64,000 nucleotides of DNA from Clostridiales bacterium (lineage in GTDB: Bacteria > Bacillota > Clostridia > Christensenellales > Aristaeellaceae). The translations under genes and the position numbers were made by a program. Within the stretch, counting starts at the first letter, position 1, and every line of letters starts with the position of its first letter. Positions 29,566 through 40,027 of the stretch are shown in pieces. The DNA lies in assembly GCA_012729115.1 (NCBI GenBank), contig JAAYDR010000059.1, positions 1-64,000 of the forward strand, in the 5' to 3' direction. Below the pieces are notes generated by a model, which was not told the origin of the DNA, did no database searches, and was given only the letters and a program-made list of their open reading frames with translations.

Positions 29566-29907
29566 CTATTTCCAGGTGAGGGTGAGCACGATCCCCGCGA
29601 TGATCAGGGCATTGCCGATGAGCTTGCGGCGGGTGATCTTCTCCCCCAAAAAGAGATGAGACAGAAACAGGACATATAGATATCCGGACGCCTCCAGCAC
29701 CCCCGCCACGGACAGGTCCAGCTCGCCCAGGGCCAGGATGTTGAGCAGCATGCAGCCAAAGAACAGGGCATAGGCGAGGATGGCGGGAAGGTTCAGGTAG
29801 AAGCGCAGGCCCTTGTGGGCAGGATTGCTGGCCGCCTTTTTGAGGATCACCTGGGAGAGGGCGGCCACCAGGGGGGTGATGAGGTAAATAAGCACACTAA
29901 CGGTCAT
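29566..29907 (-). CDS. SMR/EamA-like half-transporter, second of a pair
   Basis: 113 residues with four membrane helices, small multidrug resistance-like ([18 protein letters not shown] start, [33 protein letters not shown] region at the end, with the conserved E-K motif). It overlaps the first half gene by 11 bases. In ArnE/ArnF and related systems such pairs flip undecaprenyl-phosphate sugars, and the neighbouring GtrB-like and GT-C genes make that role likely here. A multidrug exporter is the alternative. Confidence 0.78.
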
Positions 29908-30301
29908 GATCCGTCACCACGAGCACCACTCCCGCCAGCACCACCAGGATGCCGACGGCCTTTCCCCAGGTTATCTCCTCGCCAAAAAACAGAAGACCAA
30001 ACAGGATGGTCCACAGGGTGCATACCGCCCGGTTGCTGTAGGCAAAGGAGAGGTCTACCCGCCGGAGGATGAGCTGCCATAGCAAAGTATAGACCAAAAG
30101 GGCTAAAAACTCCAGCCCTACGAACACAAGGGTGGTTTCCCACAGGCCCGCCAGGCGGTACAGCCCCGCGTACTTGGCAAAGACGCTGGCCAGGCTGTAC
30201 AGTAGCAGCGTCAGATGGAGAAAGAGATAGGAACGGATGTCCGGCCGGGGAGATTCGATCCGGTGGGAGGGTTGAAACCTGCCGGATTTTCTGGGTGTCA
30301 C
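29897..30301 (-). CDS. SMR/EamA-like half-transporter, first of a pair
   Basis: 134 residues. A 22-residue charged N-terminal stretch precedes four membrane helices (LHLTLLLYSLASVFAKYA, then DLSFAYSNRAVCTLWTILFGLLFFGEEI, EamA/SMR signature with the GEE motif, and VGILVVLAGVVLVV). Presumed heterodimer partner of the next gene. Together they would supply the flippase step of the glycan operon. Direct proof from sequence is lacking because SMR proteins have few diagnostic residues. Confidence 0.75.
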   Translation of the reverse strand: MTPRKSGRFQPSHRIESPRPDIRSYLFLHLTLLLYSLASVFAKYAGLYRLAGLWETTLVFVGLEFLALLVYTLLWQLILRRVDLSFAYSNRAVCTLWTILFGLLFFGEEITWGKAVGILVVLAGVVLVVTDHDR

Positions 30302-30314
30302 AGGCTCGCCTCCC

Positions 30315-31052
30315 TCATCCTACATGCTTCACATAGGTGTACAGGGTGCTGGAGAGGGTCGCTCCGGCATTCATGTAGACCCGCAGCACTTTCCAGTTGT
30401 TGCTGACAATTGTGCTGGAAAGCTGCTTGCAATCCCAGGCAAAGCAGGTATCCAGGGTCTTTTTGTGGAGCAGGGCCCCCATGCCCCGGTCGCGGGACTC
30501 GTCATACAGCCCCATGAGCACCGGGTCCACGGTATCCTCATCCACCCGGCTGACCACAAAAAAACCAAAGGGCCGTGCACCCTGCAAAACCTCATACAAC
30601 TTTCCGCCGGAGGCAATGATCCTGTCCACCCAGTTGGCAAAGCGGTTACCGGACTGGGCATGGGAAAAGAAAGGGTCGATGGACACCCGGTCCGAGGTAA
30701 AAATTCCATCCCGAATCAAGCGGCCAATCCGTTCCCGATCATCGGGCAAGGTCCGTTCCGCTACGGTCAGCCCCCGATCAAAGCGGGCGATGGTGGCGGG
30801 CATGGCATAGTCTCCCCGCTTGATCGTTACATGAAACACGGTTTCAACGAAGGTATATCCCAGGGATGGCAAGCCGAAAAGCAACTGGGAGCAGTTCACC
30901 GGGGTTTTGACCACCAGATACCGGGCCCCCTTTTGGATGCAGTCCTGCTCCACCTGGGACAGATCCTGGAGGGTATCCCGGGGCTCCAGCAGGAGTTCAC
31001 AGGTGTCAATGCCCAGGTTTTCAAGTTCCCAGGTGGCGTGTATAGTCTTCAT
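30315..31052 (-). CDS. GNAT-superfamily acyltransferase, WecD-like
   Basis: 245 residues in two halves. The C-terminal half shows a GNAT core (FGFFVVSRVDEDTV, then SRDRGMGALLHKKTLDTCF as the acyl-CoA loop, and SNNWKVLRVYMNAGATL). This layout resembles WecD/FdtC-type sugar N-acyltransferases and FemAB-like proteins. It overlaps the glycosyltransferase gene before it by 32 bases. With a dedicated acyl carrier protein in the same operon, it may move an acyl group from ACP or CoA to an amino sugar. That substrate is inference. Confidence 0.72.
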   Translation of the reverse strand: MKTIHATWELENLGIDTCELLLEPRDTLQDLSQVEQDCIQKGARYLVVKTPVNCSQLLFGLPSLGYTFVETVFHVTIKRGDYAMPATIARFDRGLTVAERTLPDDRERIGRLIRDGIFTSDRVSIDPFFSHAQSGNRFANWVDRIIASGGKLYEVLQGARPFGFFVVSRVDEDTVDPVLMGLYDESRDRGMGALLHKKTLDTCFAWDCKQLSSTIVSNNWKVLRVYMNAGATLSSTLYTYVKHVG

Positions 31053-32004
31053 GGCGACCCTCCTTCCCTCTGGGGTCGATGATGCTGCGCACCACGTACT
31101 GGGGGCTGCGGTTGATACTCAGATAGATGCGGCCCACATACTCCCCGACAATGCCGATCAGCGCGATAATGACGCCGCCCAGGGTGAGCATCACTGCCAG
31201 CGTGCTGGCCCAGCCTGCCTGAATGGATGGATCGATGAGCTTTCGAATGATGGTGACCAGAGCAAACAGGAAACCAAAGATCGCGGTGAACCAGCCGATG
31301 TAATTGGCCAGGCGGAGAGGCTTGATGGAAAAAGCGGTTACGCCGTTGGACCACAGCGAGATGAGCTTGCGCAGGGTATAACCGCTTTCTCCCTGCAGCC
31401 GGGCTTTGTGGGTAACAGGCACATTGGTGCAGGTGCTGACGCTTTGAAACAGCAGTCCCGTAATGTAGGGGAAGGGGTTTGGATAGCGCAGGGCGCTGTC
31501 CACCACAAAGCGCTGGCAGGCAAAGTAGCTGTTGGGGGTGATGTCCTTGGGCTGGCCAAAGAAGAAATGGTTGCAAGCGGCATTGAAGCGGCTGCCCAGG
31601 TTGCGGAAGAGGCTTTGCTTGCGCTGGGCATACTGGGCGAAGACAATGTCATAGCCCTCCCGAACCTTGTCGATGAGCTTGAAGCATTCCAGGGCAGGGG
31701 TCTGGCCGTCGTCGTCCAGACAGATGATGATGTCGCCCCGCACCTGCCCAAAGCCCGCCATCAGGGCGCTGTGCTGGCCGAAGTTGCGGGACAGGTTGAC
31801 AAAGACCAGCCGGGGATCGGCAGCGCACAAGGCGGCGATGGCGCTTGCCGTATCGTCCGGGCTGCCGTCGTTGACCAGAATGATTTCATAATCAAACTCC
31901 GCCAGGCGGGGGTCCACCGTGGCATGGATTTCCGCCACCACCTGACCGATGGTGTTCTGGGAGCGATAACAGGGGATCACGAAGGAGAGAAGGGTCTTGT
32001 CCAT
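31021..32004 (-). CDS. Polyprenyl-phosphate glycosyltransferase, GtrB/ArnC type
   Basis: 327 residues. GT2 catalytic domain (LLSFVIPCYRSQNTIGQVV, DYEIILVNDGSPDDTA, CLDDDGQTP with the DxD-type metal site) followed by two C-terminal membrane helices (YIGWFTAIFGFLFALV and MLTLGGVIIALIGIVGEYVGRIYL). This is the classic GtrB/ArnC/DPM1-like architecture that loads one sugar from a nucleotide donor onto undecaprenyl phosphate at the cytoplasmic face. Located 38 bases after the LuxC-like gene. It provides the lipid-linked sugar for the flippase and GT-C proteins of this operon. Confidence 0.92.
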   Translation of the reverse strand: MDKTLLSFVIPCYRSQNTIGQVVAEIHATVDPRLAEFDYEIILVNDGSPDDTASAIAALCAADPRLVFVNLSRNFGQHSALMAGFGQVRGDIIICLDDDGQTPALECFKLIDKVREGYDIVFAQYAQRKQSLFRNLGSRFNAACNHFFFGQPKDITPNSYFACQRFVVDSALRYPNPFPYITGLLFQSVSTCTNVPVTHKARLQGESGYTLRKLISLWSNGVTAFSIKPLRLANYIGWFTAIFGFLFALVTIIRKLIDPSIQAGWASTLAVMLTLGGVIIALIGIVGEYVGRIYLSINRSPQYVVRSIIDPRGKEGRHEDYTRHLGT

Positions 32005-32041
32005 GGGGGAATCACCTCAAATGAGTATAGGCCGGGATGCG

Positions 32042-33274
32042 TTACCAGGTTTCCACCTGGCGGGATAGGATGTTGATCAGGTCGTATCCGTCCCAGGCAA
32101 GGGAAAAGTCCAGGCTATGGCCCAGCGGCACAATGCGGTCGATGCCCTTGAGCCCATGGGACAGGATCAGTTGCCGGAGTTCCTGAGGGTCAATGCCCAG
32201 ATACGTCACCGTCTGAAACTTCGGGCTTACGAGGGCCAGGAGAGCGCTCAGGTCGGTGTCGATGTATTCCACAAAAAGGCCTCCGGGGCAGCGGATGCTT
32301 TCCACCTGAGGGCTGAGTTCCTTCACACCGATGCGGGCAATCAGGTTGTCCCCGCCGGCCGGGCGGTAGACCTCCCCAAGCCGGAGGGCAGCCTCATAGA
32401 AAGCTGTGAGCTTGTCCACAGACACCACGGGCTGGAGCGTATAGCGAGGCGCGGCGTAGCTATGGACAGCCTTCCAGAAGCGGTCCTGGGCAGCACGGGT
32501 CTTGTGAAGGGAGGGAGTATCCTCATTCTCCGCCAGCCAGTACAAAAGCCTGGGAGAGGTGCAGGCATTCTGGTCCAGAAGATAAGTGTCGTTGTAAAAG
32601 CCCTGTGCTGCGGCCTGAAGCTGCTTGTCCTCCAGGGCAAGCACCGCCGAGGCTCGCAGAACCAATAGGGAATAGCGGTCCGGAAAGGTGATGTCAAAGG
32701 CCCGGGGAGACAGGGGGATCCGGCGGATATGGGTCACGGTTTCGTCCCCGCCCCAGATGATCCTTACATCGCAGAGGGTGCTGAGTTCCTGGGTGATCTC
32801 CTGCCGCTCCCGGGGATAGGAAATCACATTCACATAGGGCCGAAGGGTTTGAAAGGAGGAAGCAAGCAGGCCCTCCATCACCTGGCAGACAAGGCGGGTC
32901 TGGGGGAAGTCCCGGCTTGGGGCCTTCACCAGGGAAGCATTGCCCGCCAGCAGAGCGGCAACCAGGGAATAAGCAAAGTTGAGGGGAACATTTCCTGGGG
33001 CGATGTGGAAGACCAGCCCCCGTCCAACGCGGTTGCCTTTGCTCCAGGTTTCGTAATCCCGGCGGTGTTTTTCCAGATTGCCCCTGCGGCAGAAAAAGGC
33101 CAGAGCGGTCAGGTCCGGATACTCCCGGAGCGCTTTGTCTTCAAGCAGTGCGGCGGAAAGAGCCTCTAAAAACGCCATCACGGGAGGGGCAAAGGGCGTC
33201 AGGGGAGGAGCTGCCGCGGCCAGGGTGAAATCTCCCGCGCCGCACAGCCAGGCGCAGCTCTCATGTGTGCTCAT
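32042..33274 (-). CDS. LuxC-like acyl-CoA/acyl-protein reductase
   Basis: 410 residues of the LuxC family. NADPH-binding region FHIAPGNVPLNFAYSLVAAL with GNASLVKAPSRDF, then the catalytic cysteine in LLDQNACTSPRLLYW, equivalent to the LuxC active-site cysteine. C-terminal block PLGHSLDFSLAWDGYDLI is also typical. LuxC reduces a thioester-bound acyl group to an aldehyde. It overlaps the LuxE-like gene by 14 bases. No luciferase or LuxD is present, so the aldehyde must serve another purpose, presumably the glycan made by this operon. Ribosome site is weak because the start lies inside the preceding gene. Confidence 0.9.
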   Translation of the reverse strand: MSTHESCAWLCGAGDFTLAAAAPPLTPFAPPVMAFLEALSAALLEDKALREYPDLTALAFFCRRGNLEKHRRDYETWSKGNRVGRGLVFHIAPGNVPLNFAYSLVAALLAGNASLVKAPSRDFPQTRLVCQVMEGLLASSFQTLRPYVNVISYPRERQEITQELSTLCDVRIIWGGDETVTHIRRIPLSPRAFDITFPDRYSLLVLRASAVLALEDKQLQAAAQGFYNDTYLLDQNACTSPRLLYWLAENEDTPSLHKTRAAQDRFWKAVHSYAAPRYTLQPVVSVDKLTAFYEAALRLGEVYRPAGGDNLIARIGVKELSPQVESIRCPGGLFVEYIDTDLSALLALVSPKFQTVTYLGIDPQELRQLILSHGLKGIDRIVPLGHSLDFSLAWDGYDLINILSRQVETW

Positions 33275-34340
33275 AGGTATCGCTGCACCCCCTTACCTCC
33301 GCCCGGGCGACCCGCCCGAACACGGTGAAATACTTGCCCTTGCGGCCGCAGGGGCAGTCGTCCTCCCCCAGAAGGGAGCCTTCGTCCTCGGTGAGGAGGA
33401 TGTGCCCGGGATAGCTGCGGGGCAGGAGGCTGCTGACCTGGATCAGACCACGCTGGCCCATGGGAGCAACCGAGAAATCCCAGGGGTCCCGGATGGTCAC
33501 ATCGGACCAGACCGGGGCATGAAGATGCCCCTGTTCGCATTCCAGATAGATGGTACCGGTCTGCTCCACCATACCATAGTAATCATGGATTTGGGTGATA
33601 CCGCAGACCTCGCCCAAGGCGGCCTTGAACCCCTGGGGGGACACAGCCTGGGAGGTCAGCTTTTTCCAGCCGCCCCCATGGATGAGGATGCCGGCGGATA
33701 AATCCGGCTTTTCTCCAAGACGCAGAAGCTCTTGATAGAAATGCTGCCAGATGATAAACGTGAAGCCAAACAGGAAGATGGGACTCCCCCGATGCCTGGA
33801 GAGAAAGGCCTTCAGGCCCTCCACATCCAGGGCCATGGACTCATCCAGGGCGAAAAACCTGTCCCTGGCAAAGATGCTGAAGCCCAGGATGCCCGCCCCG
33901 CGAGCGGAGAATTGGGTCCGGCTGGACACCAGGGCGCTGCTGTCCAGGATGATCATGGGCAGGCGGCTGTTCCCCAGAAAGCTGGCCACGATCTTTGACA
34001 GAGCCTTGCTCTGGGCTGTGCTGGTTTCCCGGTCCAGGTAAATACGGCTGACTTGCTGACCCGTCGTGCCGCTGCTGGTCATGGTCCTGTAGAGCTGCTC
34101 CTGGGGCACGCTTTTCAGGGAAAACTCCTTGAAAAGCCGCACAGGCAGAAAGGGGATCTCCTCATGGCTTTGGATCCGGTCCAGATCCGTTCCCCAGGCG
34201 GAGAGCATCCGGGCATACTCCGGGCAGCCGGCCGCATGATGGCGGCTTAAGGCCAGGAGTTCCCGGGTGAGAAGAGCCTGCTTGGCTTCCCTGTCCAGAC
34301 CATAGGGAGCCAGGGCCAGCAGGGCGTCCATGTCAGTCAT
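33261..34340 (-). CDS. LuxE-like acyl-protein synthetase
   Basis: 359 residues of the LuxE/PaaK-like ANL family. The AMP-forming motif is MTSSGTTGQQVS, with FLPVRLFKEFSLKSV before it and HDYYGMVEQTGTIYLEC later. CPCGRKGKYFTVFGRVARAE carries the ANL hinge and possible metal cysteines, and a cysteine close to the C terminus (RGCSD) could be the acyl-carrying residue as in LuxE. It would activate a carboxylic acid with ATP and pass it to the LuxC-like reductase. The ATG at 34340 overlaps the preceding ligase gene by 8 bases. Acid substrate unknown. Confidence 0.88.
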   Translation of the reverse strand: MTDMDALLALAPYGLDREAKQALLTRELLALSRHHAAGCPEYARMLSAWGTDLDRIQSHEEIPFLPVRLFKEFSLKSVPQEQLYRTMTSSGTTGQQVSRIYLDRETSTAQSKALSKIVASFLGNSRLPMIILDSSALVSSRTQFSARGAGILGFSIFARDRFFALDESMALDVEGLKAFLSRHRGSPIFLFGFTFIIWQHFYQELLRLGEKPDLSAGILIHGGGWKKLTSQAVSPQGFKAALGEVCGITQIHDYYGMVEQTGTIYLECEQGHLHAPVWSDVTIRDPWDFSVAPMGQRGLIQVSSLLPRSYPGHILLTEDEGSLLGEDDCPCGRKGKYFTVFGRVARAEVRGCSDTYEHT

Positions 34341-35739
34341 AGTACTGCTCCAGCTCCTTATAGAGCGTTTTGCCCGCATCGTTGTGGGGGATTTCCGGGA
34401 TGACCTTGGCATGGAAGGCCACCGGGTTAAGGCCGGTTTTTTCAATCAGGTAGCGGCGCAATTCCGGCAGGAGATCCTCCCTGGTGGCAAAGAGGTAGAG
34501 ATGGTCGTCCTTGCCTCCGCAGACCAGATCCACATCAGGAAAGGCGGCTTTCAGCAGCCCTTCGGCTTCGTCCAGGTTCACCCGGTTCCCGAAGATCTTC
34601 AGAAAGCGCTTCTGACGGCCTACGATGGTGAAATAGCCGTCGGCGTCCATTTTGGCCATGTCCCCGGTATCCAGCACGCCGCCCCGCTCATCCCCCAGGA
34701 CCAAATCGGCGGCGCTTTGGGCATATCCCAAAGTGACGTTGTCCCCATGGTAGCGCAGCTCGCCGGTGATTTCCGGCTGGGTAATCACTGTTCCATCCCC
34801 GTCCAGGAGTTCAAAGCGCCCTCCTGGAATGGCGATGCCTATGGTACCAGCCTTCTCCAGGCTCCGTGTCCAGGGCAGGTAGGACATGCGGGCAGTGGCC
34901 TCGCACTGGCCGTACATGACGTAAAACTTCCGCCCGGTTTCCAGGCACCAGCGGGCCAGCTTCTCATGGAGAGCAAGGGACAGTTTGCCCCCGGCCTGGG
35001 TCATGACCTTAAGACTGGGCAAATCCATGCGGGTAAAGCGCATCCGGTCCAGCATTTCGTAGGTGTAGGGAACGCCGCCGAAGCTGGTTGCCTCCCGGGC
35101 CTTGAAAAAGCTCCAGAAGTCCTTCTGGGCAATGCCTTTATCCGTAAGCAGGATGGCAGCCCCCACGTCCAGATGGCTGTTGATGATACTCAGCCCATAG
35201 GTGTAGTGCATGGGCAGGGTGGTGATGGGCCGCTCCCCTGCGGTCAGCTCCAGGTATTCCACAATGCTGTCTGTGTTGGAGCGGATGTTGCGGTAACTCT
35301 GCCGCACAAACTTGGGGCTGCCTGTGGAACCGCTTGTGGTGAGCAGGAGCGCCAGATCCGCATGCAGCTGTGTTCTGTCCTCAAAGGGCGTTGCCAGAAG
35401 CTGGTAGCCAAAACGTTTGTACACCGGCATGCACTTTTTTACGCGCATGCCCTCCGGCACCCACAGAAACTTGGGAGCATAGGCCTGGTACAGGGCTTCC
35501 AGTGTTTCCGGATTTGTGTCTGCCCCCAGCATGGCAGGAACAATGTTCCCTTCCAGAAAGGAGGCATACCCCAGGAAGCTGCCCAGGGTATTCTGGCAGA
35601 CCTGCAGGACCAGGCAGCGGCTCCCGACAGCCTGGCACAGAGCGCGGCCCTCCCGGGCCAGCTCTGCGTAGGAAAGGCGCTGACCAAATTCGTCGACAAC
35701 GGCAACCTGGCTGCCGAAACGATCAAATGTCCACATCAT
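34333..35739 (-). CDS. ANL-superfamily acyl/aminoacyl ligase
   Basis: 468 residues. AMP-binding motif LLLTTSGSTGSPKFVRQ, A5-like MYGQCEATARMSYLP, A7 GVLDTGDMAKMDADGYFTIVGR, hinge KRFLKIFGNRVNLDEAE and C-terminal catalytic lysine region NDAGKTLYKEL. The layout fits a stand-alone adenylation enzyme that loads a carrier protein, like DltA. It starts inside the end of the acyl carrier protein gene, so the two are translationally coupled and are the natural pair. Substrate not readable without modelling of the pocket. Confidence 0.88.
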   Translation of the reverse strand: MMWTFDRFGSQVAVVDEFGQRLSYAELAREGRALCQAVGSRCLVLQVCQNTLGSFLGYASFLEGNIVPAMLGADTNPETLEALYQAYAPKFLWVPEGMRVKKCMPVYKRFGYQLLATPFEDRTQLHADLALLLTTSGSTGSPKFVRQSYRNIRSNTDSIVEYLELTAGERPITTLPMHYTYGLSIINSHLDVGAAILLTDKGIAQKDFWSFFKAREATSFGGVPYTYEMLDRMRFTRMDLPSLKVMTQAGGKLSLALHEKLARWCLETGRKFYVMYGQCEATARMSYLPWTRSLEKAGTIGIAIPGGRFELLDGDGTVITQPEITGELRYHGDNVTLGYAQSAADLVLGDERGGVLDTGDMAKMDADGYFTIVGRQKRFLKIFGNRVNLDEAEGLLKAAFPDVDLVCGGKDDHLYLFATREDLLPELRRYLIEKTGLNPVAFHAKVIPEIPHNDAGKTLYKELEQYYD

Positions 35740-35959
35740 ACTTCCGCAGAATCTCCTTGCCCTTTTCAAAAGAACTCAAATCGATGATATCATCCATCTC
35801 CATCATGATATCAAAGGCATCCTCCAGCCTGGCCACCAAAGTCATATGGCCTACGCTGTCCCAGGAAGGGCTTTCGCCGTAGACCAGAGAAGGTACCTGG
35901 TCCGGCGCCACTTCCAGGGCGGCTGCAAAGGCGTCTACGTATTTATTCAGATTGCTCAT
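35723..35959 (-). CDS. Acyl carrier protein of the glycan operon
   Basis: 78 residues. The phosphopantetheine site is the serine in SPSWDSVGHMTLVARLEDAF, with the typical following helix and acidic surface (DIMMEMDDIIDLSS). AAGGAGG lies before the ATG. It is too divergent to be the housekeeping AcpP (DSL replaced by DSV), and its position next to the ANL ligase suggests that it carries one particular acyl or aminoacyl group. Confidence 0.92.
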   Translation of the reverse strand: MSNLNKYVDAFAAALEVAPDQVPSLVYGESPSWDSVGHMTLVARLEDAFDIMMEMDDIIDLSSFEKGKEILRKYDVDI

Positions 35960-35990
35960 GGGATTTCCTCCTTGCTGTTGATAAGCGCTG

Positions 35991-36734
35991 CTACAGGATG
36001 CCGCCGTCCACCCGCCAGGTCTGGCCGGTAACGTAACTGGCTCTGTCGCTGGCCAGAAATGCCGCCACCTGGGCAATTTCCATGGGATCGGCCGGGCGTC
36101 CCAGGAGAATCCTGGCCAGGGTTTCCTGGCGAACCTTTTGGGAAAGACCGCTGACCAGATCCGTATCTGTGTAACCGGGGGCAAGGGCGTTGACCCGGAT
36201 GCCCTGGCCCGCATACTCCCGCGCCAGCTTTTGGGTGGCGGCGATGACAGCTGCCTTGCTGGCCGAGTAGTCGATCCGGCTGTCCCCATCCAGGCCAGCC
36301 ACACTGGCGATGTTTACCACCGCTCCCCGGCTGCGGCGGGCCATCAGGCGGGTCGCAAAGCGGGTGACCTCCAGAAGGGCGAAGAAATTGACATCAAAGA
36401 TGCTGCGCATTTCCGCTTCGGATGTCATCTGGAAGAGCCTGTCCTCTCCCATGATTCCCGCGTTGTTCACCAGAATGTCCAAAGGCTGCTTGTCCGCCAG
36501 CACCTGGGCAAAGGCCGCCTTGCGTGCGGCCTCGTTGGTGAGTTCGGTATACACAGGCCGCACCCAGACCCCGTGCCGCTGGGACAGAGCTTGGCAATCT
36601 TCCATAAAGCTCGCGCTTTCCTTGCGCGCAAAGGCCCATACATTGGCGCCCTCCCGGGCGAAAGCCGTCATCAGGGCATGGCCGATGCCCCGGGCGCATC
36701 CGGTAATGAGTGCGTTCTTTCCTTCCAGCAACAT
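35991..36734 (-). CDS. Short-chain dehydrogenase/reductase, FabG-like
   Basis: 247 residues. Cofactor motif ALITGCARGIGHALM, NNAGIM, catalytic Ser in NIASVAGLDG, Tyr and Lys in DYSASKAAVI, and the C-terminal GQTWRVDGGIL. It is a classical SDR that resembles 3-oxoacyl-ACP reductases. In this operon it could reduce an ACP-bound beta-keto group, or a keto-sugar. The start at 36734 has AAAGGAG 7 bases before. It begins just before the stop codon of the preceding GT-C gene. Confidence 0.92.
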   Translation of the reverse strand: MLLEGKNALITGCARGIGHALMTAFAREGANVWAFARKESASFMEDCQALSQRHGVWVRPVYTELTNEAARKAAFAQVLADKQPLDILVNNAGIMGEDRLFQMTSEAEMRSIFDVNFFALLEVTRFATRLMARRSRGAVVNIASVAGLDGDSRIDYSASKAAVIAATQKLAREYAGQGIRVNALAPGYTDTDLVSGLSQKVRQETLARILLGRPADPMEIAQVAAFLASDRASYVTGQTWRVDGGIL

Positions 36735-36738
36735 CGCG

Positions 36739-38211
36739 TTACTCCTTTGGGACAAGGGTTACGGACTCCTTGCGGTAATACTCCGCATAGAGGCTTAGCA
36801 CATAATCGATGGCCTGGCTGTCTGCCGCGTCGCCCATAAACACCTTGGGAACCGGGTCCACGGGGCGGAGGGCAACGGTTGTCTGGGCGGGGTCGTTCAT
36901 GGCTGCATCCCGCGTATCCATTTGCCGGTCATAGGCCTGGGCTTCCCCCTTGAGGAGAGAGAAAACGGCCGTACCGGCGGTGGAGTTCTGAGGGCCATAG
37001 CTTTCCCGGCCCTGGGGGCGATAGGCTGCCATGCCCACCACCAGGAGCACGGCGGCTAAAGCCAGCACAGGAAGGGAAACCCGGGGCGAGGGCTCCGGCT
37101 GGATGCCGGTGTTCCTTGACAGGAGAAAACCTGCCCAGTAGGTGGCAAGGCCGCAGACCATCAGGCAATAGGAGTAGTAATAGGTGTTCATCACCCGGCC
37201 ATCCCCCAGAAAGTTGCCTGTATAGAGGGTGGGGGCAAGCTGGGCGCAGAACAGGCATAGGGCAGCCAGGGTGACCCACAGGGGATGGGCAAAGGCTGCG
37301 CTGTTCCGGCGCAGGGTGGGCAGCAGGAGCCAGGTTAAAATCAGAGCTACCGCCAACAGGGGCAGGGAGAACCAATGGCCCATGAGGGCCAGGCCAAAAT
37401 AGAGGGCCTGGGCCACGGCCATGGGGGCGCTCAGACCGCCCTGCAGAGTCTTGGCCCGGACGGCATTGCCGGGGGCGGATGCGCTGAAGGCCAGGCACAG
37501 GAGGAGGACCAGGGTCAGCATAGCAAAGGCAAGGCGCTTTGGATGCCGCCGTACAAAAGCCAGGAGGGTAAAGGCGAGGGCCAGGAGCAGCGCCACAAGA
37601 ACCATGGAATATTTGCCTCCGCCCAGGAGCACGGCGAGTACCAGAAGCAAAGCAAAGAGAGCGGCGGACTTGCCCCTGGTTTTTAAGCGGGCATAGGCCA
37701 GCCAGCATCCGGCGGTCAACAGCAGCAGGCTCCACAGAAAGGTATAAGCCACGCCCCCATTGAACCAGAAGAAGGCCTCCGATGGGCTGGGGGCCAGCTG
37801 CACCATCAAAAAGGCCAGCCCGCAAAAGGCGATGATAACCGTGGGGGCATCCGCGTGCAGGGTTTTCCCCAGCACCTGCCACAGGAAGAAGCCCAGGGCC
37901 AACAGCAGCCCCGTAACCAGCACAAAGGTACCGATCCAGTAATGATCTTCTCCCCAGACACCGGGCTGGAGACCGCTGAGAAAAGTGGTGGTATAGGTAC
38001 CCTCCCAGGTATTGCGGGTACCCAGGGTGTTCTCCCAGGCGGCGCGCAGGACGGCCATGTGGCTGCCGGTGTTCCGCCAGGCAGCGTGGGGCTTGATGGA
38101 AAAACCAAAATCGTCATAAAAGGGATGGTTGAAAAAGGAGAGGCCATAGACGGGGAGCAGGCTTAACAGCAGCAAAATCACGCAGAGAAAGGCCAGGATT
38201 TTTTTGCTCAC
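36739..38211 (-). CDS. GT-C-like membrane glycosyltransferase (DUF6056), copy 2
   Basis: 490 residues with about eleven membrane helices. The first extracellular loop carries NHPFYDDFGFS; the paired aspartates are where GT-C enzymes keep their catalytic acid. Other shared marks with copy 1 are WEGTYTTTFLSGLQPG, SPSEAFFWFNGGVAYTFLW and SAPGNAVRAKTLQGG. A C-terminal soluble tail of about 80 residues is extracytoplasmic. It overlaps copy 1 by four bases (ATGA). Predicted to transfer a sugar from an undecaprenyl-phosphate donor outside the membrane; DUF6056 has no proven function known to me. Confidence 0.8.
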   Translation of the reverse strand: MSKKILAFLCVILLLLSLLPVYGLSFFNHPFYDDFGFSIKPHAAWRNTGSHMAVLRAAWENTLGTRNTWEGTYTTTFLSGLQPGVWGEDHYWIGTFVLVTGLLLALGFFLWQVLGKTLHADAPTVIIAFCGLAFLMVQLAPSPSEAFFWFNGGVAYTFLWSLLLLTAGCWLAYARLKTRGKSAALFALLLVLAVLLGGGKYSMVLVALLLALAFTLLAFVRRHPKRLAFAMLTLVLLLCLAFSASAPGNAVRAKTLQGGLSAPMAVAQALYFGLALMGHWFSLPLLAVALILTWLLLPTLRRNSAAFAHPLWVTLAALCLFCAQLAPTLYTGNFLGDGRVMNTYYYSYCLMVCGLATYWAGFLLSRNTGIQPEPSPRVSLPVLALAAVLLVVGMAAYRPQGRESYGPQNSTAGTAVFSLLKGEAQAYDRQMDTRDAAMNDPAQTTVALRPVDPVPKVFMGDAADSQAIDYVLSLYAEYYRKESVTLVPKE

Positions 38212-39749
38212 GGGGCAGCCTCCTCTCCCGCCAGGTGGATGGCGGTTTTTCCATAGTACTTCTGAAGCATAAGCCGCACGGTTTCCCCTGCGTCCAGGGT
38301 CAGCTGGTCCTTCATAAACAGTTCCGGAACCACCGAAAGGGGGCTCAGGGTAATCTCGGGCTGGGAGGCATCGTTCAGCAGGACCTCTCTGGCCGTCATC
38401 TCCCGGTCATACTGCCGGGCCTCCCCGGTTACAATGGACAGGGCCGCGCTCATCCCCGCCAGGTTGGGCAGGCCGTAGGTTTTGTCCGCGGGGCGTTTGT
38501 AGCCAAGGCAACCCACCACCAGCACGAGGGCAGAAGCCAGAACCAGACCCTGCTTGACGGGTGCGGGGAAGGAGGCCGGCAGGTGGGCGCGCCCGGCTTT
38601 CTCCAGCCGGCGCAGGGCAAAGCCCGTCAGATAAAAGGCATACAGAAGCCACAGCACCACAAAGCTTAGCCAGTAGGTATCCACAATGCGGCCCCCGCCG
38701 ATAAACACGCCGCCATAGAGGGGCGGGACCAGCTGGGTGCAGAACAGGCCCAGGCCGCCCAGAAGCCATAACCAGGGATGGGAGAAGGAGAAGGGGCTGG
38801 CCTTGGCGGCGGTATATAAGAAGGGGAGGACCAGGGCCGTCACCCCCAGCAGGGGAAGTGACAGGAAGCTGCCTGCCAGGGCCGTGCCATAGTACAGGGC
38901 CTGGGCAACGGCTTTCACAGGGGATATGCTGCTGGCAATCACACCGGCCCGGACCGCATTCCCCGGCGCCGACATGTTGTACAGGAAGCAGCCCAGGAAA
39001 ACCAGCGTGAACATAAGAAGCAGCGGAGCCTTTGGCCACCTGCGGACAAAGGCCCAGGCGGTGAGCCCCAGGTACAGGCACAGGCCAAACAACCCGCCCC
39101 CATAGCTTCCGCCGCCCAGCAGCACCATGAGAATCAGCAGGGCGAGAGTGAGGAAGATAGGCGCTCCGCGGGAGGCGGTGCGGAGCAGTCGGGCACACAG
39201 CCCCAGGCTTAGCACCAGCAGGGAATAGATGAAAGTGTTGCCGATGCCTCCGTTAAACCAGAAGAAGGCTTCATCCGGATCGGGCATGAGCTGCACCAGC
39301 AGGGTGAGGGTAAGGCTGATCAATATCACCAGGGAAGGCCTGTCAAGACCCAGCAGATCCCCAAAAAGAACCTTCAGAAAAAAGCCGAAGCAGAGCACAA
39401 AGGCTGTGAGGAGCACAAAGGTGGTGAGGAAGTACAGGCTTTCCGAAAAAACTCCGGGCTGGAGATTGCTTAAAATGGTGCCGGTATAGGTTCCCTGCCA
39501 GGAGGCACGGATGCTGGCCGCGCTTTTTAGAGCAGCCTGAAGCACCGCTTGCAGGCTGCGGGTCTCACTCCAGGCGGCATGTACGTCTGCGGAGAACTGG
39601 TAATCGTCATAGTAGGGGTGATTGTACAAGGACAGGACATACAGCGGCAGGGTGCTTGCCGCCAGCAGCAGGGCGCACAACCAGGCAAGCAGCCTTTTGG
39701 AAGGCAGGGGAAGGCTGCGCTTTTTGCGAGCGGTGGGGGAATGATCCAT
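38208..39749 (-). CDS. GT-C-like membrane glycosyltransferase (DUF6056), copy 1
   Basis: 513 residues, about eleven membrane helices, first gene of the glycan operon. NHPYYDDYQFSADVHAAW after the first helix holds the DD pair; WQGTYTGTILSNLQPGVF, DPDEAFFWFNGGIGNTF and NMSAPGNAVRAGVI align with the next gene, so the two arose by duplication. The ATG at 39749 is chosen because the upstream GTG sits directly on the ribosome site AAAGGAG. It starts about 54 bases after the predicted transcription start. Acceptor and sugar unknown. Confidence 0.8.
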   Translation of the reverse strand: MDHSPTARKKRSLPLPSKRLLAWLCALLLAASTLPLYVLSLYNHPYYDDYQFSADVHAAWSETRSLQAVLQAALKSAASIRASWQGTYTGTILSNLQPGVFSESLYFLTTFVLLTAFVLCFGFFLKVLFGDLLGLDRPSLVILISLTLTLLVQLMPDPDEAFFWFNGGIGNTFIYSLLVLSLGLCARLLRTASRGAPIFLTLALLILMVLLGGGSYGGGLFGLCLYLGLTAWAFVRRWPKAPLLLMFTLVFLGCFLYNMSAPGNAVRAGVIASSISPVKAVAQALYYGTALAGSFLSLPLLGVTALVLPFLYTAAKASPFSFSHPWLWLLGGLGLFCTQLVPPLYGGVFIGGGRIVDTYWLSFVVLWLLYAFYLTGFALRRLEKAGRAHLPASFPAPVKQGLVLASALVLVVGCLGYKRPADKTYGLPNLAGMSAALSIVTGEARQYDREMTAREVLLNDASQPEITLSPLSVVPELFMKDQLTLDAGETVRLMLQKYYGKTAIHLAGEEAAP

Positions 39750-39810: not shown

Positions 39811-39839
39811 AGTATATCATTTTCTTTAAGGAATGGAAA
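39811..39839 (-). promoter_or_regulatory. Promoter of the glycan/LuxC-LuxE operon
   Basis: On the minus strand TTTCCA (39839-39834), 17-base spacer, TATACT (39816-39811). The -35 matches 4 of 6 and the -10 five of six consensus bases. It lies about 62 bases before the first GT-C gene. No other good promoter is seen down to trpS. Confidence 0.55.
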
Positions 39840-39950: not shown

Positions 39951-40027
39951 GTGCCCGTAGCTCAGCTGGATAGAGTGTCAGACTCCGACTCTGAAGGTCG
40001 CTGGTTCGAACCCAGTCGGGCATACCA
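39951..40027 (+). tRNA. tRNA-Arg (anticodon CCG)
   Basis: Full cloverleaf: acceptor GTGCCCG pairs with CGGGCAT, D arm GCTC/GAGT, anticodon stem TCAGA/TCTGA with loop CTCCGAC giving anticodon CCG, T arm with TTCGAAC loop. Discriminator A at 40024 and an encoded CCA at 40025-40027. It reads CGG arginine codons. Own promoter upstream and terminator downstream, so it is a single-gene unit. Confidence 0.95.

What the first reader, a model, noticed from the sequence alone, without database searches (positions are those of the whole stretch)
29566..39749. Glycan operon with a built-in carboxylate-reduction module
Seen: eleven minus-strand genes, mostly overlapping or within 40 bases, from one promoter at 39.8 kb: two GT-C/DUF6056 proteins, SDR, ACP, ANL ligase, LuxE-like, LuxC-like, GtrB-like glycosyltransferase, GNAT, two SMR halves. 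Known: GtrB/ArnC proteins load undecaprenyl phosphate, SMR pairs such as ArnE/F flip it, GT-C enzymes use it outside; LuxE activates and LuxC reduces carboxylic acids. Inferred: the operon makes an undecaprenyl-phosphate sugar carrying an acyl-, amino-alcohol- or aldehyde-derived group and attaches it to a surface polymer. I do not know a described system with exactly this set.
Basis: partly seen in the sequence, partly recalled or inferred. Interest (0 to 1): 0.88.

Follow-up and report, generated by a model that had tools for sequence, protein, structure and literature searches.

The report
Acyl-amino-sugar operon with carboxylate reductase
This Gram-positive bacterium carries one conserved operon that appears to build a small reduced acid, attach it to an amino sugar, put that sugar on a membrane lipid and move it outside to decorate the cell surface; the acid-making part is an under-recognised cassette also found in flagellin-sugar islands and resembling a cholera O-antigen pathway.

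Summary
In detail: eleven tightly packed minus-strand genes (29566-39749). The single-system idea is supported. The nine-gene core keeps its order in seven other genomes of the genus and, as far as contigs reach, in five of a sister genus. SMR1 is absent from the three operon-negative genus genomes examined and present in all nine operon-positive genomes tested, often on another contig. New here: a curated dTDP-4-amino-4,6-dideoxygalactose transaminase (WecE, elsewhere in the genome) follows the operon in the same way (8/8 versus 0/3 in the genus), and the operon's GNAT has WecD, the acyltransferase for that sugar, as its best structural match. DUF6056 proteins are GT-C folds and GtrB is ArnC-like. 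Best reading: LuxE/LuxC and the SDR reduce a short acid to a hydroxy acid, ANL loads it on the ACP, GNAT puts it on dTDP-Fuc4N, GtrB moves the sugar to undecaprenyl phosphate, SMR flips it, and DUF6056 transfers it. The five-gene acid cassette is not new: it is listed in Aeromonas and enterobacterial flagellin glycosylation islands (called fatty-acid genes) and functionally resembles the V. cholerae O1 tetronate pathway. Chain length and acceptor remain inferred. Verdict: new variant of a known kind.

The parts
38208..39749 (-). DUF6056a, 513 aa membrane protein, GT-C-like transferase; tandem paralogue of DUF6056b; no Pfam hit of its own
   Evidence: 43% identical to DUF6056b with shared N-terminal YDD motif
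36739..38211 (-). DUF6056b, 490 aa, GT-C glycosyltransferase
   Evidence: PF19528 36.3 bits; model pLDDT 85.7; the top 44 VIA rows are all GT-C enzymes, Z 12.0 (AftB) down to 6.8, ArnT 10.8, next row 2.9
35991..36734 (-). SDR (FabG-like), 247 aa; proposed reductase of the LuxC aldehyde (alternatively 3-oxoacyl-ACP reductase)
   Evidence: adh_short_C2 191.6 bits; TGxxxGIG and YxxxK present in the translation
35723..35959 (-). Acyl carrier protein, 78 aa; phosphopantetheine Ser35 invariant in 11 cassette ACPs
   Evidence: PP-binding 19.4 bits, just under cut-off; alignment
34333..35739 (-). ANL adenylating ligase, 468 aa, proposed to load a short hydroxy acid on the ACP; nearest solved chains are oxalate- and malonate-CoA ligases
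   Evidence: AMP-binding 119 bits; PDB matches
33261..34340 (-). LuxE-type acyl-protein synthetase, 359 aa, Cys352 in GCSDT aligned with GCS of Photobacterium LuxE
   Evidence: (163 bits), alignment, PDB 7xc6_E
32042..33274 (-). LuxC-type acyl reductase, 410 aa, Cys238 in DQNACTSP aligned with DQQACFS of Photobacterium LuxC
   Evidence: (99.6 bits), alignment, PDB 7xc6_A
31021..32004 (-). GtrB/ArnC-type GT2 polyprenyl-phosphate sugar transferase, 327 aa
   Evidence: NCBIfam ArnC model 181.9 bits; nearest PDB chains ArnC 165 bits and GtrB sll0501 142 bits
30315..31052 (-). GNAT acyltransferase, 245 aa, WecD-like
   Evidence: NCBIfam WecD below cut-off; model pLDDT 84.8; WecD 2fs5 top of PDB, Foldseek E 1.4e-13, VIA Z 18.6, rmsd 3.4 over 213, next row 15.0
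29897..30301 (-). SMR1, 134 aa, ArnF/EamA-like flippase half
   Evidence: co-occurrence
29566..29907 (-). SMR2, 113 aa, proposed second flippase half
   Evidence: conserved directly after SMR1 in relatives; family by reading and position, not tested with a family library
39811..39839 (-). Promoter-like site TTTCCA-17-TATACT, about 62 bases before the first ATG
   Evidence: not above chance in number

Best explanation
The operon makes and exports an N-acylated 4-amino-4,6-dideoxyhexose. (1) LuxE activates a carboxyl group of a small acid (most likely a C4 acid such as malate), LuxC reduces it to an aldehyde and the SDR reduces that to an alcohol. (2) The ANL ligase adenylates the resulting hydroxy acid and loads it on the ACP. 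(3) The WecD-like GNAT transfers it to the 4-amino group of dTDP-Fuc4N, which the unlinked RmlB and WecE of the same genome provide. (4) The ArnC/GtrB-like enzyme moves the acylated sugar to undecaprenyl phosphate, the SMR pair flips it, and the two DUF6056 GT-C enzymes attach it to a surface polymer. Shown here: gene set, conserved order, co-occurrence with SMR1 and WecE, conserved key residues, WecD and GT-C folds. Inferred: order of the steps, identity of the acid (C4 dihydroxybutyryl or 4-hydroxybutyryl as first guess), acceptor.
For: Core gene order kept in 12 related genomes as far as contigs reach and in several chromosomal contexts. SMR1 in 9/9 operon-positive and 0/3 operon-negative genomes, mostly unlinked. 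WecE scores 590 bits (cut-off 375), present 8/8 against 0/3 in the genus and in all three sister-genus genomes that are at least 90% complete; RmlB 490.7 bits (cut-off 365). GNAT fold best = WecD; DUF6056b fold = GT-C; GtrB nearest ArnC. Parallel locus L088 in a Paenibacillus-type genome joins RmlABC, WecE (647 bits), an ArnF-like SMR, GtrB, ANL-LuxE-LuxC, GNAT, SDR, ACP. Elsewhere the cassette lies beside transaminase plus PseH-type GNAT. Literature: V. cholerae RfbN has a LuxE domain and RfbL activates 2,4-dihydroxybutanoate for carrier RfbK (PMC4772473, PMC12208996). Aeromonas AH-3, with this cassette, has an unknown 102 Da glycan moiety; dihydroxybutyryl adds 102.032.
Against: No enzyme activity is known for any of these proteins. 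Malate/dihydroxybutyrate rests on analogy and on nominal masses; 102 Da also fits other formulae (C5H10O2, C3H6N2O2). The GNAT keeps an acetyl-CoA-type RGMGA loop and could use plain acetyl-CoA. The three operon-negative genomes may share a single loss, so the co-occurrence counts are not independent; two genomes of another genus have WecE without this operon. The SDR could instead act on an acyl-ACP. Two sister-genus genomes lack WecE but are only 60-66% complete.
Confidence: 0.6

Rival explanations
1. The cassette makes a long-chain acyl or fatty-aldehyde derivative, giving a lipid-bearing sugar, as authors suggested for the flagellin islands.
For: LuxC/LuxE are named after long-chain enzymes; Aeromonas and enterobacterial papers propose a liposugar.
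Against: Nearest solved ligases are for oxalate and malonate; the Aeromonas glycan contains a 102 Da unit and no fatty chain was reported; the V. cholerae analogue uses a C4 acid.
Confidence: 0.13
2. LuxC aldehyde is joined to the sugar amine as such (imine then N-alkyl sugar) or is turned into an amino alcohol; the GNAT acetylates separately.
Against: No dedicated amine-forming or imine-reducing enzyme in the conserved core; ANL, ACP and a WecD-like acyltransferase fit amide formation better.
Confidence: 0.1
3. LuxE/LuxC products serve a transketolase-type two-carbon extension, so the acyl group is a longer sugar-like acid.
For: Transketolase halves lie by the cassette in four distant loci: L020, L023, L032, L088.
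Against: No transketolase gene in or beside the window operon or in the relatives' stretches inspected.
Confidence: 0.07
4. Two units share one transcript: a three-component glycosylation system and an unrelated acid-reducing pathway.
For: The cassette occurs without GtrB/SMR/DUF6056 in most other loci.
Against: The order with DUF6056 in front and GtrB-GNAT behind is kept in the window and its 12 relatives as far as contigs reach, and unlinked WecE and SMR follow it; elsewhere the cassette still sits with aminosugar genes.
Confidence: 0.08

Closest known systems
Vibrio cholerae O1 tetronate pathway (rfbKLMNO / wbeKLMNO, VC0248-VC0252)
   Same: Carrier protein RfbK, ligase RfbL/WbeL (471 aa) activating 2,4-dihydroxybutanoate, LuxE-domain protein RfbN; the acid is linked to the amino group of a 4-amino-4,6-dideoxyhexose.
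   Different: Here LuxE and LuxC are separate proteins, the alcohol-forming enzyme would be an SDR and the transferase a WecD-like GNAT (the different V. cholerae enzyme types are recalled, not tested); the sugar is dTDP-Fuc4N type rather than perosamine and leaves via Und-P, SMR and GT-C.
Aeromonas Group II flagellin glycosylation island (orf1 ACP, orf2 reductase, orf3 AMP synthetase, luxE, luxC) and enterobacterial FGIs
   Same: The same five gene types together.
   Different: There they lie with pseudaminic acid genes and flagellin glycosyltransferases; here with GtrB, SMR and GT-C, no pse genes, and SDR before ACP.
Three-component (GtrB / flippase / GT-C) glycosylation systems, the subject of PMC8035078 and PMC11127046 (found, abstracts only)
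   Same: Polyprenyl-phosphate sugar synthase, small flippase, GT-C transferase.
   Different: Built-in acyl-making cassette and sugar-specific acyltransferase; paired DUF6056 as the GT-C.
ArnBCDEF-T (4-amino-arabinose) and WecE/WecD (ECA Fuc4NAc)
   Same: ArnC-like GtrB, ArnF-like SMR, ArnT-like fold; WecE and WecD-like steps.
   Different: Deoxyhexose instead of arabinose, and a non-acetyl acyl group proposed.

Membership tests
V. cholerae O1-type tetronate pathway | Dedicated acyl carrier protein | tested here: met
   ACP with invariant Ser35
V. cholerae O1-type tetronate pathway | AMP-forming ligase for 2,4-dihydroxybutanoate | tested here: inconclusive
   ANL of matching length (468 against 471 aa) and short-acid relatives; RfbL sequence and substrate not testable
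V. cholerae O1-type tetronate pathway | LuxE-type (with LuxC-type) reductase | tested here: met
   Both present with aligned cysteines, as separate genes
V. cholerae O1-type tetronate pathway | Dedicated alcohol dehydrogenase RfbM | tested here: inconclusive
   An SDR occupies the place; RfbM family recalled from memory
V. cholerae O1-type tetronate pathway | Acyl acceptor is a 4-amino-4,6-dideoxyhexose | tested here: inconclusive
   WecE and RmlB present and WecE co-occurs; GNAT is WecD-like; transfer not shown
V. cholerae O1-type tetronate pathway | Product is 3-deoxy-L-glycero-tetronate | not testable with these tools
   needs chemistry
Aeromonas Group II FGI cassette | ACP, 3-oxoacyl-ACP reductase, AMP synthetase, luxE, luxC together | tested here: met
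   against the gene list in PMC7874193
Aeromonas Group II FGI cassette | Linked pse genes | tested here: not met
   none in or beside the window operon; so not filed as an FGI
Three-component glycosylation system | GtrB-type polyprenyl-phosphate sugar transferase | tested here: met
Three-component glycosylation system | Small flippase | tested here: inconclusive
   SMR1 is near ArnF but below the curated cut-offs; it co-occurs with the operon; flipping not tested
Three-component glycosylation system | GT-C transferase | tested here: met
   DUF6056b model, 44 GT-C rows with Z 6.8-12.0 then a drop to 2.9
Three-component glycosylation system | Transfer on the outer face to a known polymer | not testable with these tools
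   acceptor unknown
WecD (dTDP-fucosamine acetyltransferase) | Curated WecD model score | tested here: not met
   28.5 bits against 195; similar fold only, so not filed as WecD itself
WecE (unlinked gene of the same genome) | Curated WecE model score | tested here: met
   590 bits, cut-off 375

The most novel reading that the evidence does not exclude
The SDR-ACP-ANL-LuxE-LuxC set is a general, mobile cassette, spread over several phyla, that makes reduced C4 hydroxyacyl groups for amino sugars. It would explain the unidentified 102 Da moiety of Aeromonas flagellin glycans (and, by formula, the 376.148 Da pseudaminic acid derivative), and in this Gram-positive genus it has been wired into an undecaprenyl-phosphate three-component glycosylation system.
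Probability: 0.4. Interest if true: 0.75.

Novelty: new variant of a known kind. Interest (0 to 1): 0.58.

Why it matters
It would turn genes annotated as fatty-acid or luminescence genes into a defined sugar-acylation cassette, give a concrete identity to test for an unsolved flagellin glycan mass, assign DUF6056 proteins to a donor sugar, and show how a Gram-positive bacterium puts an acylated amino sugar on its surface.

Tried and rejected
Counting the short LuxE-LuxC pairs of the same order (L025-L029) as the same system: rejected, about 94-103 bits for LuxE and no ACP, ANL, SDR, transaminase or acyltransferase nearby. Amino acid activation by the ANL: the A4-type stretch LPMHYTYG lacks the aspartate of amino-acid domains (sequence; motif knowledge recalled), and the best solved relatives are oxalate/malonate ligases. 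Phage relatives: a single 25% hit. Flagellin as acceptor: not supported, since GT-C enzymes act outside and no pse genes are linked; flagellin genes were not searched. V. cholerae proteins could not be fetched from the held collections. GNAT had no match in solved-chain sequences, only by fold. The Salmonella plasmid LuxE cluster (L160) has no annotated ACP or LuxC and was set aside. Counts used several GNAT and PglD queries taken from the same loci, and many of the loci are from related Paenibacillus-type genomes, so they describe the loci and are not an independent test. No paper in the library mentions DUF6056.
Full report
Observation. Eleven minus-strand genes lie between 29566 and 39749, mostly overlapping or within 40 bases. 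SMR2 was not put to a family library; it is identified by its constant place after SMR1. The two DUF6056 proteins are tandem paralogues, 43% identical, sharing an N-terminal YDD motif. The only minus-strand sigma-70-like site in 14 kb lies 62 bases before the first start codon, but such hits are near chance in number. trpS follows after 43 bases, so the transcript may continue.

Is it one system? Searching 200 genomes of the family with a LuxE profile (A1) found the cassette type in 15 genomes, including the window's own, seven others of the same genus and five of a sister genus. In all of these the order DUF6056a-DUF6056b-SDR-ACP-ANL-LuxE-LuxC-GtrB-GNAT is kept as far as the contigs reach, while the flanks differ. 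The SMR pair is adjacent only in some; in others it sits on another contig between a recJ-like gene and trpS. Yet SMR1 is found in all nine operon-positive genomes tested and in none of the three operon-negative genomes of the genus (chance of such a split 1 in 220 if genomes were independent, which they are not). The unit therefore behaves as one system with a detachable flippase.

What sugar? The window genome has a true WecE, the dTDP-4-amino-4,6-dideoxygalactose transaminase, on another contig (590 bits, cut-off 375), and RmlB (490.7 bits, cut-off 365). WecE is in all eight operon-positive genus genomes and none of the three negative ones; in the sister genus it is in the three genomes of at least 90% completeness and missing from two that are 60-66% complete; two genomes of a third genus have it without the operon. 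The operon's GNAT model (pLDDT 84.8) has WecD, the next enzyme on that sugar, as its top match: Foldseek E 1.4e-13, VIA Z 18.6, rmsd 3.4 over 213 residues, next row 15.0. By sequence it is far below the curated WecD score (28.5 against 195), so it is a WecD-like enzyme, not WecD.

Export and transfer. GtrB is nearest to ArnC among solved chains (165 bits). The DUF6056b model (pLDDT 85.7) matches GT-C enzymes in each of the first 44 VIA rows, including AftB, oligosaccharyltransferases and ArnT (Z 12.0 to 6.8), with a drop to 2.9 after them. Foldseek alone gave only E 6e-3 for the same class.

The acid-making cassette. LuxE and LuxC align with the Photobacterium-type LuxC-LuxE complex (7xc6), including the cysteines in GCS and DQxAC; both are invariant in nine cassette members. 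The ACP serine is invariant. The ANL ligase is nearest to oxalate- and malonate-CoA ligases among solved chains. A Deinococcus copy has its own phosphopantetheinyl transferase next door.

Where else is it? The cassette occurs in Paenibacillus-type genomes with pseudaminic-type genes, in loci from the phylum of a Cytophagaceae genome, and in Deinococcus, Rhizobium, Ponticoccus and Nonomuraea records. Of 31 loci outside this operon's clade, 25 have a GNAT or hexapeptide acyltransferase and 20 a DegT-type transaminase within the fetched stretch; five loci of a different LuxE-LuxC family have neither. L088 is an independent parallel of the window: RmlABC, WecE (647 bits), an ArnF-like SMR, GtrB, ANL-LuxE-LuxC, PseH-like GNAT, SDR, ACP (RmlABC read from the sequence).

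Comparison with the literature. The same five gene types are listed in Aeromonas Group II flagellin glycosylation islands and in enterobacterial islands, where they are called fatty-acid genes (PMC7874193, PMC4875605). The V. cholerae O1 tetronate genes contain a LuxE domain (RfbN) and a ligase (RfbL/WbeL) for 2,4-dihydroxybutanoate with carrier RfbK (PMC4772473, PMC12208996); deletion of wbeL abolishes O1 antigen (PMC3441752). That gives the simplest role for every enzyme: reduce one carboxyl of a short acid to an alcohol (LuxE, LuxC, SDR), activate the other (ANL, ACP), and acylate an amino sugar (GNAT). From chemistry, L-malate would give 2,4-dihydroxybutyrate in this way; that step is inference. 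In Aeromonas AH-3 the flagellin heptasaccharide carries an unknown 102 Da moiety. A dihydroxybutyryl group adds 102.032 Da, the published total of 1491.5 is reproduced with it (1491.490), and the 376.14 Da pseudaminic derivative fits the replacement of one acetyl by the same group (376.148). These masses fit other formulae too and are a lead, not proof.

Verdict. A real, conserved operon; interpretation partly supported and sharpened. New variant of a known kind: a tetronate-like acylation cassette combined with a three-component glycosylation system in a Gram-positive genus. Confidence about 0.75 that the product is an N-acylated 4-amino-deoxyhexose on undecaprenyl phosphate, about 0.4 that the acyl group is a C4 hydroxy acid; acceptor polymer unknown.

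Noticed in passing
L020:5433-7262, L023:12573-14376, L032:5230-7054, L088:12925-14786: Transketolase N- and C-terminal halves lie beside the LuxE-LuxC cassette in four distantly related bacteria, suggesting a subtype that extends the aldehyde by two carbons.
   Followed up: partly
L023:5446-6120, L045:5296-5976, L046:11912-12652, L047:11413-12147: A metallo-beta-lactamase-fold hydrolase recurs next to the cassette; it could act as an acyl-ACP thioesterase in place of LuxD.
   Followed up: partly
L025-L029: A second, distant LuxE-LuxC pair without ACP, ligase or SDR is common in the same order; its role is unknown.
   Followed up: no
L078:5150-7006, L079:12926-14830, L082:5032-6888: Some genus members have a 619-635 aa protein directly after the GNAT in place of the SMR pair; the L078 copy has no Pfam match.
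   Followed up: partly
L092, L158, L159: A divergent version of the cassette (LuxE 241-255 bits, LuxC 66-75 bits) with extra genes sits in pseudaminic-type loci of Paenibacillus-like genomes.
   Followed up: no
L046 and L047: Cassette copies with LuxE, LuxC, ligase, MBL protein and ACP lie outside obvious glycan loci; L047 has an HpaB-family gene about 2.5 kb away, and the LuxE match carries one in-frame TAA in each genome.
   Followed up: partly
L160 (Salmonella plasmid CP054717.1 105717-111475): Plasmid cluster of LuxE-like acyl-protein synthase, AMP-binding protein, PaaK-like ligase and GNAT, near recombinase genes.
   Followed up: partly
L112:5406-9738 (own genome, contig C123): The genome also encodes RfbH (692 bits) with RfbF- and RfbG-like neighbours, so it probably makes CDP-3,6-dideoxyhexoses as well.
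   Followed up: partly
window 39951-40027 (+): A tRNA-Arg(CCG) gene lies divergently about 200 bases upstream of the operon's first gene.
   Followed up: no
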